Shown here piece after piece: positions 44,609 through 47,796 of a stretch of DNA of 64,000 nt. Under the pieces are notes generated by a model, which had not been told where the DNA came from, searched no databases, and saw only the letters and a program-made list of their open reading frames with translations. Each line of letters starts with the position of its first letter. Position 1 is the first letter of the stretch. The stretch is from the NCBI RefSeq assembly GCF_000230675.1, contig NZ_AGIK01000002.1:124001-188000 (forward strand), given 5' to 3'. Source of the stretch: Synechococcus sp. WH 8016. GTDB taxonomy: Bacteria; Cyanobacteriota; Cyanobacteriia; PCC-6307; Cyanobiaceae. The translations under genes and the position numbers were made by a program.

Positions 44609-44992
44609 ATGACACGCAAAGCGGGTTTGATCTCAGACTTCAAAGCTTTCATCAACAAAGGCAATGTGGTTGATCTCGCCATTGCCGTTGTGATTGCTGG
44701 CGCATTCGGCAAGGTTGTTGGCTCCGTCGTGACCTTGATCATGACCAATGCGCTTGAGCCGGCCTTGAAGGCCGCCAATGTGGACTCGATCAATGCCTGG
44801 CCTGCAGGCAGCGTGATTGTGGCGATCATCAACTTCCTCGTGATCGCCTTTGTGTGCTTCTTGATTGTGAAATCAATTGAGGCCTCAAAGCGGAAGCAAG
44901 AGGTCATTGAGGAAACGAAGCCTGACCCCCAAGCTCAACTAGCTTCCGCCATCACTCGCCTCACTGACGCTTTAGAGCGCAAGGGGTTCTGA
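44609..44992 (+). CDS. mscL: Large-conductance mechanosensitive channel
   Basis: Opens under membrane tension to release solutes on hypo-osmotic shock. The 127-residue protein has the amphipathic N-terminal helix and pore helix (about residues 10-46) with FKAFINKGNVVDLAIAVVI, a short periplasmic loop (about 47-66), a second span (about 67-88) and a charged C-terminal helix. The loop is shorter than in E. coli MscL. Its last 21 bases overlap the convergent Fic gene. Confidence 0.92.
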   Translation: MTRKAGLISDFKAFINKGNVVDLAIAVVIAGAFGKVVGSVVTLIMTNALEPALKAANVDSINAWPAGSVIVAIINFLVIAFVCFLIVKSIEASKRKQEVIEETKPDPQAQLASAITRLTDALERKGF

Positions 44993-46132
44993 AGCGCTTG
45001 GCCAATGGATCCGATAGGCGCGGCTGCGGCCCTCCCCGATCGGCTCGATCGCCTGCTGTTCCACGAGTTCGCTCAGGTCTCGCCAGGCCGTAGCGCGGCT
45101 CACTTTGGTGAGGCTGATGGCCTTGCGCAGGGTCATGCCGCCCGTGAAGCCCTCCGGTTCGGCATCCAGCAACCGATTGAGCAGTTTCTGCTGGCGGTTG
45201 TTGAAGCCGCTGTAACGATGGCTCCACCAGAAAGCCGCCTTGCGCCGCACCGCATCAATCACGGCGCCATTGGTGACCGCCTCTGCCGTGAGCTGCTCCA
45301 AGAACCAGCTCAGCCAGCCCGTGACATCGAGATCTCCTCGCTGGCAGCGCTCCAAAACCGTGTAATACGCCTCGCGCTCGCGCGAGATCTGAGCAGAGAT
45401 GCCGAGGGCGCGGGCAGATAACCCCTGCTGAACGCTGGCTCTGCAGTCCTGTGCCAGAAGCCGATCAGTGATGGCACGGGCTAGGCGGCCGTTGCCGTCT
45501 TCATAGGGGTGGAGGGTGAGGAACCAGAGGTGGGCCAGGCCGGCCCGGAGCAGCCCGTCGAGCTCAGCTGGCGGGGAGGCGATCCAATCCAGGAAAACCT
45601 CCAGCTGCCGCTCGAGCTGGTTTCGGGGTGGCGCTTCAAAGTGCAGGCGCTCGCGGCCGATCACTCCAGAGAGCACCTGCATTGGGGCCTCATCCCGCAG
45701 CTCACCAATACGAATGGCGCGCAGGCCATCGGGGCCAGCGGCAAACAAGCGCTGGTGCCAGTGGTTCAACGTGGCCAGGGAAAGGGGAGCTTCAAGGCTG
45801 CTGGTGGCTTCCATCAAGACATCCAGCAGGCCCTCCACCTGGGCGCTGGCGGTCGGGTGACCTTCGGTTAGAGGGAGGCGCAGCCGCTGCGCGATTGAAG
45901 AGCGCACCTGGACGGGATCCAGCAGCTCCCCTTCAATGGCCGCCGTGCCCAAGCTCTCGCGGCCCAACAAGGCAGAGATCGCCTCGCGATCAAGCGGGGG
46001 CTCTAGCGATTCCAGCCTGCTCAGCAGCTCATGACGTGCCAAACGGGCCTGTTCAAGCAGAGGCTCCAGAGAGGAGCTCTTCCAACGGAACTGGGGCCAG
46101 TCCGGCTGCTGCCAGATCCAAGATGAAGCCAT
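44972..46132 (-). CDS. Fic-domain protein with C-terminal winged helix (AMPylator-type)
   Basis: A 386-residue Fic protein, predicted to transfer AMP to target hydroxyls. The core motif HPYEDGNGRLAR (208-219) has the catalytic His and the phosphate-binding GNGR. An N-terminal inhibitory motif, T63-x-x-x-E67-G68 (TAAIEGE), is intact, as in class II self-inhibited Fics. The C-terminus (about 325-386; MTLRKAISLTKVSRATAWRDLSEL) looks like a winged helix-turn-helix, so the protein may also repress itself. Candidate operator repeats lie just upstream of the start. The target is unknown. Confidence 0.9.
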   Translation of the reverse strand: MASSWIWQQPDWPQFRWKSSSLEPLLEQARLARHELLSRLESLEPPLDREAISALLGRESLGTAAIEGELLDPVQVRSSIAQRLRLPLTEGHPTASAQVEGLLDVLMEATSSLEAPLSLATLNHWHQRLFAAGPDGLRAIRIGELRDEAPMQVLSGVIGRERLHFEAPPRNQLERQLEVFLDWIASPPAELDGLLRAGLAHLWFLTLHPYEDGNGRLARAITDRLLAQDCRASVQQGLSARALGISAQISREREAYYTVLERCQRGDLDVTGWLSWFLEQLTAEAVTNGAVIDAVRRKAAFWWSHRYSGFNNRQQKLLNRLLDAEPEGFTGGMTLRKAISLTKVSRATAWRDLSELVEQQAIEPIGEGRSRAYRIHWPSASEPLAL

Positions 46133-46143
46133 TGGCTCAGCTT

Positions 46144-46187
46144 AATCGCTTCATCTGGCGAAGCGATTCATGACAAGGAATCGCTTC
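46144..46187. promoter_or_regulatory. Candidate autoregulatory operator of the Fic gene
   Basis: Three copies of one nine-base word: AATCGCTTC at 46144-46152, its inverse GAAGCGATT at 46160-46168, and AATCGCTTC again at 46179-46187. The first pair forms a palindrome with a seven-base spacer. They start 12 bases upstream of the Fic ATG, overlapping the expected ribosome site and promoter, and the Fic protein ends in a winged helix. A further near match (GAAGCGATCC) lies at about 46283. Confidence 0.7.
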
Positions 46188-46357
46188 ATTGAGCCAGTCT
46201 CTGGCCTTGAGACTCCATGAAAAGCTCTGCAACCAATAAGGATTTAAAAACGGGCTGTTGGGACTAATCCGGCCAGCCATCTGAAGCGATCCGGCTCTGA
46301 TCGATTATCAGCCGATCTGCATCGCTGGGGGCCGCACTCCCCTTTTCAGATGAGCGC

Positions 46358-46374
46358 CGTACAGTGTCCGTACG
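46358..46374. promoter_or_regulatory. Candidate operator of the DUF1778-GNAT module
   Basis: The inverted repeat CGTAC-AGTGTCC-GTACG lies about 20 bases upstream of the GTG start of the antitoxin gene. RHH antitoxins of this type commonly bind such palindromes to repress their own operon. Its location argues for the GTG at 46395 rather than the ATG at 46350 as start. Confidence 0.5.
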
Positions 46375-46394
46375 TTCCTGGTGGGTTTCTCGAC

Positions 46395-46715
46395 GTGACC
46401 AGCACAAAGCCGCCCGGCTACCGGCCGGCCAAGACGAGCCGAATCGAGCTGCGGGCCACAGAGGACGACCGCGACCTGCTGGATCGGGCCGCTGCTGCCC
46501 TCGGCACCGACCGCAGTTCCTTCCTTCTCTCCCAGGGGCGGCTAGCCGCACAGCGGGTGCTGGCTGATCGGCAGCACGTTCTGCTCGATGCAGACGCCCA
46601 GCAGGAATGGGAGCGGATCAACAGCCGCCCGGCCCGCAGCCTGCCCGGCCTGACGCGCCTGCTGGAGCGTCCCTCACCCTTTGCCAAGCCCGCGGCGGAT
46701 CAACCCCAGCCGTGA
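46395..46715 (+). CDS. DUF1778 (TacA-like) antitoxin
   Basis: A 106-residue antitoxin from the GTG at 46395. TSRIELRATEDDRDLLDRAAAALGTDRSSFLL is the ribbon-helix-helix DNA-binding domain of the DUF1778/TacA family; the C-terminal half (DADAQQEWERINSRPAR..., ending LLERPSPF) is the toxin-neutralising tail. The stop overlaps the toxin GTG by four bases (GTGA). An in-frame ATG at 46350 would place a palindrome inside the coding region. Expected to neutralise the GNAT toxin next to it and repress the operon. Confidence 0.9.
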   Translation: MTSTKPPGYRPAKTSRIELRATEDDRDLLDRAAAALGTDRSSFLLSQGRLAAQRVLADRQHVLLDADAQQEWERINSRPARSLPGLTRLLERPSPFAKPAADQPQP

Positions 46716-47185
46716 GCCGCTACAGCCCCCCGGAGCTGCTGGCGGCCCGTCACCAACTCGCAGGCTTCCTCTGCCGCTCCAAGGAGCAGACCACCTGGCT
46801 TGTGGAGTTCGCCAAGCAAGCCCATGGAACTGGCACCACCCGCGTGTTTGTGGTTAAAGAGATCGATCAATCAGCCGTCGTTGCCTACTACGCCTGGTGC
46901 ATGGCGAGCGTGGGAATCACGCAGCCCGTCGCTCTGCTGGCCCGCCTGGGGGTGGACGAACGTCATGAAGGCCAGGGCCTCGGTGCAGCTCTGCTGCTGG
47001 ATGTGATCTCAAGGGTCGCGAGCCTCAGCGACGCCATCGGCTGCCGCGGCTTGCTGGTGCATGCCGAATCCGGGCAAGCCCGAGGCTTCTATGAACATCT
47101 GATCCCTGAGTTCGAGCGATCACCCACTGATCCCCTGCACTTGTTGCTGCTGCTCAAGGACATCCGCCTCACAATGAGTCGCTGA
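46712..47185 (+). CDS. GNAT acetyltransferase toxin (TacT-like)
   Basis: A 157-residue GNAT-fold protein from the GTG at 46712, overlapping the antitoxin by four bases. The acetyl-CoA-binding motif is in RLGVDERHEGQGLGAALL, and GLLVHAESGQARGFYEHLIPEF carries the conserved tyrosine seen in TacT-type toxins, which acetylate the amino group of aminoacyl-tRNAs (family knowledge). Preceded by a DUF1778 antitoxin, so a type II toxin-antitoxin module. The module sits 120 bases from a tRNA-Arg gene. Confidence 0.9.
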   Translation: MSRYSPPELLAARHQLAGFLCRSKEQTTWLVEFAKQAHGTGTTRVFVVKEIDQSAVVAYYAWCMASVGITQPVALLARLGVDERHEGQGLGAALLLDVISRVASLSDAIGCRGLLVHAESGQARGFYEHLIPEFERSPTDPLHLLLLLKDIRLTMSR

Positions 47186-47308: not shown

Positions 47309-47382
<74 letters not shown>

Positions 47383-47400: not shown

Positions 47401-47796
47401 GTTGAAAGTAGGCGAGGTGATCGCAATGGATGGGTGTTGCCTTCGGGCTGCAGTCATCGGTTGAGGAAAGTCCGGGCTCCCCGATGGCCAGGCTTGCTGG
47501 GTAATGCCCAGTGCGGGTGACCGTGAGGAGAGTGCCACAGAAACACACCGCCGATGGCCGGTTCTGCCGGCACAGGCAAGGGTGCAAAGGTGCGGTAAGA
47601 GCGCACCAGCAGCATCGAGAGGTGCTGGCTCGGTAAACCCCGGCTGGGAGCAAGGCCTAGGAACGACGGGTGGCCATCTTCCCCGTTCCGCCATAGTGCG
47701 CCGCTCGAGGTCGTCGGTAACGGCGATCCCAGATAGATGATCACCCCCCTTCCTTGGAAGGGTGAACAGAACCCGGCTTATGTCCTGCTTTCACCC
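47401..47796 (+). ncRNA. rnpB: RNase P RNA
   Basis: The ribozyme component that trims tRNA 5' leaders. Diagnostic segments are GAGGAAAGTCCGGGCTCC near the 5' end, the GGTAATGCCCAGTGCGGG region, CCACAGAAACA, and AGATAGATGATCACC with the 3' GAACAGAACCCGGCTTATG. The ends pair as helix P1 (GAAAGTAGG at 47404 with CCTGCTTTC at 47784-47792). Boundaries are accurate to a few bases. It lies between tRNA-Arg and rnc, so three RNA-processing genes are neighbours. Confidence 0.96.

What the first reader, a model, noticed from the sequence alone, without database searches (positions are those of the whole stretch)
46144..46187. Triple nine-base repeat upstream of a Fic-winged-helix gene
AATCGCTTC, its inverse and a third copy lie directly before the gene, whose protein ends in a probable winged helix. 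This looks like an autoregulated Fic switch with DNA-binding and AMPylation in one polypeptide.
Basis: partly seen in the sequence, partly recalled or inferred. Interest (0 to 1): 0.6.

Follow-up and report, generated by a model that had tools for sequence, protein, structure and literature searches.

The report
Fic enzyme with self-recognised operator repeats
A protein-modifying Fic enzyme in a cyanobacterium has copies of a short DNA sequence in front of its own gene, and the same layout of copies, with letters that track the enzyme's DNA-reading helix, sits in front of related genes in several bacterial phyla, which suggests that the enzyme switches off its own gene.

Summary
In detail: three exact copies of AATCGCTTC (right, left, right) lie at 46144-46187, upstream of a minus-strand fic gene (46132-44972). 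No other 9-mer triple of this kind exists in the 64 kb, and none in 40 shuffles. The protein is DUF4172-Fic-winged helix with intact class II motifs, 41% identical to Coxiella CbFic2. The array reaches far beyond this genome: head-to-head 11-bp half-sites stand upstream of 168 of 235 relatives from several phyla, against 25 of 4976 control windows, with fixed helical spacing. The half-site letters differ by clade, and in a tree-aware scan of about 352 protein columns the three that change with them most are residues 346, 347 and 350, on the recognition helix. This is good computational evidence that the winged helix binds its own promoter as an autorepressor. Self-repression was shown before for one distant Fic protein, CccR; my searches of open-licence papers found no report of this family's operator, and CbFic2's authors leave its specific site open. 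Coupling of operator binding to AMPylation/deAMPylation is inferred. No binding data exist.

The parts
44972..46132 (-). fic gene, 386 aa, DUF4172 (5-86) + Fic (116-226) + C-terminal winged helix (about 312-375)
   Evidence: Pfam, AlphaFold model pLDDT 93.6, Foldseek to 8cil_A TM 0.88/0.93
46179..46187 (-). operator half-site 1, GAAGCGATT read on the gene strand
   Evidence: exact copy; conserved in orthologues
46160..46168 (+). operator half-site 2, inverted (AATCGCTTC on the gene strand)
   Evidence: exact copy; pair with site 1 unique in the genome
46144..46152 (-). operator half-site 3, GAAGCGATT on the gene strand, 11 nt from the start codon
   Evidence: exact copy; pair with site 2 unique in the genome
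46125..46133 (+). possible degenerate fourth half-site over the start codon (AATGGCTTC on the gene strand)
   Evidence: 1 mismatch; spacing fits, not kept in all orthologues
45059..45097 (-). recognition helix of the winged helix, residues 346-358 (RATAWRDLSELVE); 346, 347, 350 co-change with operator letters
   Evidence: model; covariation
45476..45511 (-). catalytic Fic motif HPYEDGNGRLAR, residues 208-219, intact
45929..45946 (-). N-terminal inhibitory motif TAAIEG, residues 63-68 (class II Fic)

Best explanation
The repeats are the operator of the fic gene and the Fic protein's own C-terminal winged helix is the repressor. Each 11-bp half-site (here TGAAGCGATTA) is read by one recognition helix; two head-to-head half-sites, starts 18-19 bp apart, are bound by a dimer, and further half-sites 16 or 26 bp on (one helical turn apart) give cooperative occupancy over the promoter, shutting transcription down when the protein accumulates. 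Shown by computation: existence, conservation, regular spacing, overlap with a -10 box in part of the relatives, uniqueness of the strict pair in the genomes scanned, and co-change of operator letters with the recognition helix. Inferred: actual binding, repression, cooperativity, and (from CbFic2) that operator binding also favours the dimeric deAMPylating state, so that mainly unbound monomer AMPylates.
For: Two or more copies (up to 1 mismatch) in 14 of 14 other full-length picocyanobacterial orthologues of the set. TG-register pair at 9 or more of 11 in 168 of 235 relatives against 25 of 4976 control windows. Consensus-free test: 130 of 196 upstreams beat all 50 of their shuffles. Same-direction copies, sought without preset spacing, peak at 33-35 bp (about 109 of 170 loci) and 43-45 bp (about 31); sites pointing apart are 16 bp apart in 145 cases and 26-27 bp in 38. 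Exact TATAAT across the edge of the left-pointing arm in 37 of 207 loci against 2 at the mirror-image place. Tree-aware scan: residues 346, 347, 350 are the top three of about 352 columns, all on the recognition helix. Strict palindrome in 16 of 22 further genomes; all 21 places match the fic position (against the coordinates).
Against: No binding, footprint or expression data. The strongest raw link (residue 347 with operator position 3) rests on one A/C change on the tree. Tree-aware p-values are nominal: multiplied by 352 columns, 346 and 347 with operator 6 give about 0.013 and 0.024, 345 with operator 4 and 346 with operator 5 about 0.09 and 0.13, before allowing for several operator positions. 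For operator 7 the helix does not stand out (346 is rank 56), and columns far from the helix (23, 130, 128, 47, 52, 248) are also in the combined top ten. In 28 of 235 relatives no pair passed the looser threshold. The 18-bp spacing count was helped by how pairs were picked (17-20 bp). In the window itself no -10 is recognisable at the expected place (3 of 6 letters, read), no sigma-70 promoter was found, and its second half-site has lost the outer T.
Confidence: 0.86

Rival explanations
1. The repeats are bound by another regulator, for example the TacA-type antitoxin encoded divergently next to fic, and the Fic winged helix binds DNA non-specifically.
For: A tacA-like/GNAT pair lies divergently beside fic here, and CbFic2 binds random DNA at nanomolar affinity (PMC10628234, discussion part 1 and passages).
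Against: The array goes with fic across phyla, while in 66 loci with flanks clustered the only flanking families shared widely are the housekeeping block of 14 Pseudomonas loci and one family in 9 loci at scattered places. Operator letters change with fic's own recognition helix. tacA has a different palindrome near its start, 46358-46374.
Confidence: 0.06
2. The array is the operator of Fic, but Fic acts as an activator or a dual regulator rather than a repressor.
For: By eye, right-pointing half-sites often lie between -35-like and -10-like boxes or further upstream, where activators can also act.
Against: The left-pointing arm overlaps an exact -10 hexamer in 37 of 207 loci against 2 at the mirror place, a usual repressor position; the one tested Fic-HTH protein, CccR, represses itself from sites near -35 and -10 (PMC9755527, passages).
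Confidence: 0.07
3. The repeats are a chance or structural DNA element (attenuator, dispersed repeat) without protein recognition.
For: The 9-mer itself is common in the genome (71 copies).
Against: Each pairing occurs once in the genome; 0 of 40 shuffled windows have a triple; conservation and covariation as above; the peaks at 34 and 44 bp suggest helical phasing, which an RNA element would not need.
Confidence: 0.01

Closest known systems
CbFic2 (CBU_0822, PDB 8cil), DUF4172-Fic-winged helix of Coxiella burnetii (PMC10628234)
   Same: Same three domains over full length, 41% identity, TM 0.88/0.93; class II inhibitory motif; dimer through the DUF4172 helix. In that paper 20-bp DNA induces dimerisation, which suits half-sites 18 bp apart.
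   Different: It was studied with random DNA and as a candidate effector on histones; a specific site is left to future studies. No operator is described in the parts read. Its promoter was not examined here.
CccR of Yersinia pseudotuberculosis (PMC9755527)
   Same: Class II Fic with C-terminal HTH that represses its own gene through inverted repeats near -35 and -10; footprint, EMSA and reporter done there.
   Different: Operator is AGATAATCAT-N26-ATGATAATCT, one wide pair; here the half-sites differ in sequence, stand 18 and 16 or 26 bp apart and come mostly in threes and fours. CccR is a T6SS toxin, and its authors report that its regulatory and toxic activities are independent.
SoFic / Sofic (PDB 3eqx; anti-phage system, PMC12249575)
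   Same: Fic protein with a C-terminal domain (a winged helix in SoFic, PMC2686095 passages); PADLOC model SoFic matches P0001 (1.6e-41).
   Different: NCBIfam SoFic cut-off not reached (36.7 of 550 bits); EcSofic has a small downstream antitoxin AS1 (abstract); a word search of that paper for HTH, DNA-binding, upstream and promoter found no operator.
Type II toxin-antitoxin autoregulation (Phd/Doc type; recalled)
   Same: A toxin-like Fido enzyme kept low by autorepression at palindromes.
   Different: Here enzyme, inhibitory motif and DNA-binding domain are one polypeptide; no widely shared partner gene was found.

Membership tests
Class II Fic enzyme | HxFx(D/E)GN(G/K)R catalytic motif (F or Y allowed) | tested here: met
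   HPYEDGNGRLAR at 208-219; motif in 227 of 235 relatives
Class II Fic enzyme | (S/T)xxxE(G/N) inhibitory motif N-terminal to the Fic core | tested here: met
   TAAIEG 63-68; motif (with Ile before Glu) in 232 of 235
Class II Fic enzyme | AMPylation / deAMPylation activity | not testable with these tools
   no assay
CbFic2-type DUF4172-Fic-wHTH family | DUF4172, Fic and C-terminal wHTH in one chain of about 380 aa | tested here: met
CbFic2-type DUF4172-Fic-wHTH family | DNA binding through the wHTH | tested here: inconclusive
   covariation with the operator supports it; no binding data
SoFic equivalog (NF046030) | score above the curated cut-off of 550 bits | tested here: not met
   36.7 bits
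CccR-type operator | one pair of 10-bp inverted repeats with a 26-bp spacer | tested here: not met
   half-site starts are 19 and 16 bp apart here, mostly 18 and 16 or 26 in relatives
Type II toxin-antitoxin module | separate cognate antitoxin gene next to the toxin | tested here: inconclusive
   no flanking family shared by most of 66 loci; a very small antitoxin under 60 codons would be missed
Autorepressor with self-operator | repeat array at its own promoter, in the gene's relatives too | tested here: met
Autorepressor with self-operator | measured repression | not testable with these tools
   no expression data

The most novel reading that the evidence does not exclude
The promoter array is both gene switch and enzyme switch: copies of the protein that sit as dimers on their half-sites repress fic and are held in the deAMPylating state, and only molecules without operator DNA become AMPylating monomers, so the chromosome itself acts as the antitoxin of a one-gene Fic system. 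Loss or saturation of the operator (phage degradation of host DNA, copy number) would release the AMPylase. The recognition helix and operator have co-evolved into at least five specificities with one geometry. Against it: CccR's two activities were reported independent, and DNA also raised AMPylation by a CbFic2 mutant lacking the inhibitory Glu.
Probability: 0.22. Interest if true: 0.85.

Novelty: new variant of a known kind. Interest (0 to 1): 0.63.

Why it matters
It predicts a specific DNA site for a widespread family of DNA-binding AMPylases whose studied member was characterised with random DNA, turns an open question into a simple binding test with a defined sequence, and suggests a readable code between three residues of a winged helix and its operator. 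If binding also sets AMPylation against deAMPylation, it would be a one-gene toxin controlled by its own promoter DNA.

Tried and rejected
Raw mutual information between protein columns and operator letters gave residue 347 as an outlier, but the tree showed a single A/C change at operator position 3 (2 changes in all with T). I do not count it as independent evidence and rely on the tree-aware scan. Independent-pairs tests had too few pairs to be significant (1 pair, and 3 or 4).

The -10 overlap was first counted with one mismatch allowed: 96 of 207 loci at one offset, next best 22. Four of the six letters belong to the half-site itself in the TGAAGCGATTA clade, so that count is inflated: the mirror-image place gives 40 of 207. 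The fair figures are exact TATAAT 37 against 2, and the two letters outside the arm 59 against 15.

A wider regulon was sought with strict pair patterns and not found; weaker or single sites were not assessed. A conserved partner gene was sought and not found among 66 loci. The half-site words were searched in the paper library: 26 papers, of which the 20 listed are unrelated by title.

Rows dropped: one search kept 80 of 407 relatives. Of the places, 30 came as loci, 47 more were taken and 15 were not fetched, most of them short or partial (three had frames over 360 aa). Three fragments and five places were not fetched. Chains up to 330 aa or with under 100 nt upstream were left out. For covariation 191 loci in clean register, with the window put in by hand, were used of 235; arms that disagree at a position were left out there. 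Exceptions to the code: one A347 gene with C at operator 3 (RAIR row), one D347 gene with T in one arm (PDLR row), and L239, which keeps G at operator 2 despite Asn351.

Full report
What is there. On the minus strand, ATG at 46132 opens a 386-aa Fic protein with DUF4172, Fic and a C-terminal winged helix (Pfam E 7.4e-23, 7.1e-13, 7.9e-7). The catalytic motif HPYEDGNGRLAR and the inhibitory motif TAAIEG are intact. AlphaFold gives mean pLDDT 93.6, with helices 312-323, 335-342 and 346-358 followed by strands 362-365 and 372-375; the best solved match is CbFic2, 8cil (chain A TM 0.88/0.93, 41% identity). Read towards the gene, the upstream DNA is TGAAGCGATTC, 19 bp on an inverted copy, 16 bp further a third copy, whose 9-mer ends 11 nt before the start codon. 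A fourth, degenerate copy overlaps the start codon.

Is it chance? No other 9-mer in the window has three non-overlapping copies within 60 nt, and none appears in 40 dinucleotide shuffles. In the whole genome each of the two pairings occurs once, although the bare 9-mer occurs 71 times.

Orthologues. In the family of the window's genome 25 of 400 genomes have a match at E 1e-30 or better, fragments included: the gene is patchy. All 14 other full-length picocyanobacterial genes in the set have at least two copies within 1 mismatch and 12 have three or more (sequences). Relatives of other phyla show the same arrangement. Of 84 upstreams, 81 have two or more half-sites within 2 mismatches of TGAAGCGATTA or TGAGCCGAATA and 68 have three or more, against 7 of 2855 control windows with two or more (these words were taken from the data). 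Of the 220 non-picocyanobacterial genes, 160 have no copy of the window's own 9-mer within 1 mismatch, because their clades use other letters. Members from wider searches (DUF4172 in 86 of 398 genomes; 38 of 386; 29 of 247; 22 of 198; 1 of 6) brought the set to 235 distinct full-length genes. A pair of head-to-head 11-mers beginning TG, 17-19 bp apart, matching at 9 or more positions, is found in 168 of 235, and in 25 of 4976 control windows of the same loci. Without any consensus, 130 of the first 196 upstreams beat all 50 of their own shuffles.

Geometry. Same-direction copies (170 of 196 loci with 9 or more of 11 matches, spacing 11-45 allowed) peak at 33-35 bp (about 109 loci) and 43-45 bp (about 31). 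In the 191 clean-register loci, neighbouring sites pointing apart are 16 bp apart in 145 cases and 26-27 in 38; sites pointing at each other are 18 bp apart in 247 cases, 17 in 32 and 19 in 20, but here the reference pair was picked at 17-20 bp, so this count is partly built in. The extra 10 bp is one helical turn. The commonest layout is right-left-right-left (69 loci). An exact TATAAT straddles the edge of the left-pointing arm in 37 of 207 loci, against 2 at the mirror-image place, so in part of the family binding would cover the -10. In the window no -10 is recognisable.

Which protein reads it? The half-site letters differ by clade within a frame near TGnnnnnAwwA (the register was set on TG). 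R346 A347 F/W350 goes with TGAAGCGATTA, K A T with TGAGCCGAATA, P/Q/T D L with TGCGGnGA, H D N with TGCGTnGATAA, I A T with TGATTAATAAA. Position 3 is A for Ala347 in 235 of 236 arms, C for Asp347 in 76 of 76, T for Arg347 in 4 of 4 (160 loci); but the A/C change happened once on a tree of residues 1-300, so this is one event. In the tree-aware co-change scan, residue 346 ranks first of 352 for operator positions 5 and 6, residue 347 second for position 6 and third for position 4, residue 345 first for position 4; for position 7 the helix does not stand out. Summed over positions 3-7 the three best columns of the whole protein are 346, 347 and 350; with 345, four of the top ten lie in 343-355 (nominal p 2e-4), the other six do not. 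The model places 346-350 on the first turns of the recognition helix. Arg351 is invariant in the 191 clean-register loci; in 13 hold-out genes from the phylum-level cyanobacterial search it is Leu, Asn or Ile, and there operator position 2 is T in the right-pointing copies and A in the left-pointing one, not G (read by eye); L239 is an exception.

Specificity. The strict palindrome was found in 16 of 22 further genomes, at 21 places, and every place lies within about 150 bp of the fic start when coordinates are compared with the loci (contig identity inferred from matching coordinates). In the 6 others the arms carry mismatches. No second strict target was seen.

Mechanism. I take the winged helix to be the repressor of its own gene, by dimers on 29-bp pairs, two pairs per promoter in the complete form. 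CbFic2 work (PMC10628234: abstract, section 12, first part of the discussion, passages) reports that 20-bp random DNA induces dimers and that the dimer deAMPylates while the monomer AMPylates; the authors leave a specific site open. It also reports that DNA raises AMPylation by the E66G mutant. Joining this to the operator is inference.

What is known. CccR (PMC9755527: abstract, outline, passages) is a distant Fic-HTH protein shown to repress itself through a different, single, wide palindrome, with regulatory and toxic activities reported independent. The Fido paper (PMC2686095, passages) suggested that HTH domains fused to Fic may regulate fic. Searches for CccR with FtsZ, DUF4172, Fic with operator or autoregulation words, SoFic with DNA binding, Fic with inverted repeat and own promoter, and the half-site words showed no report of this operator in their listings; only open-licence papers are held.

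Biological role is open. PADLOC's SoFic model matches the protein and Sofic is an anti-phage protein (PMC12249575, abstract and passages); a defence role is possible but untested, and the protein fails the NCBIfam SoFic cut-off.

Noticed in passing
46350-47185: A TacA-like antitoxin and GNAT acetyltransferase pair lies divergently beside fic; a palindrome CGTAC-N7-GTACG at 46358-46374, near its start, may be its own operator.
   Followed up: partly
L310-L324 (upstream of SoFic-like genes): SoFic-like fic genes, another family (below the NCBIfam cut-off), also carry repeats upstream, in several of the form TGTATAGAAAA / TTTTCTATACA: 11 of 14 upstreams have an inverted 11-mer pair (11-45 bp apart) at 10 or more of 11; 60 of 757 windows of the same loci do. 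Self-operators may be general among Fic-winged-helix proteins.
   Followed up: partly
47405-47795 and 47309-47382: RNase P RNA (class A, +) and a tRNA (-) lie beyond the TacA/GNAT pair.
   Followed up: no
L023, L031 (genome G075); G034, G123: Three genomes of the same genus hold only pieces of this gene or of its DUF4172 domain; the G075 stretches have no exact half-site.
   Followed up: partly
44972-44992: The fic reading frame overlaps the end of the convergent mscL frame by 21 bp.
   Followed up: no
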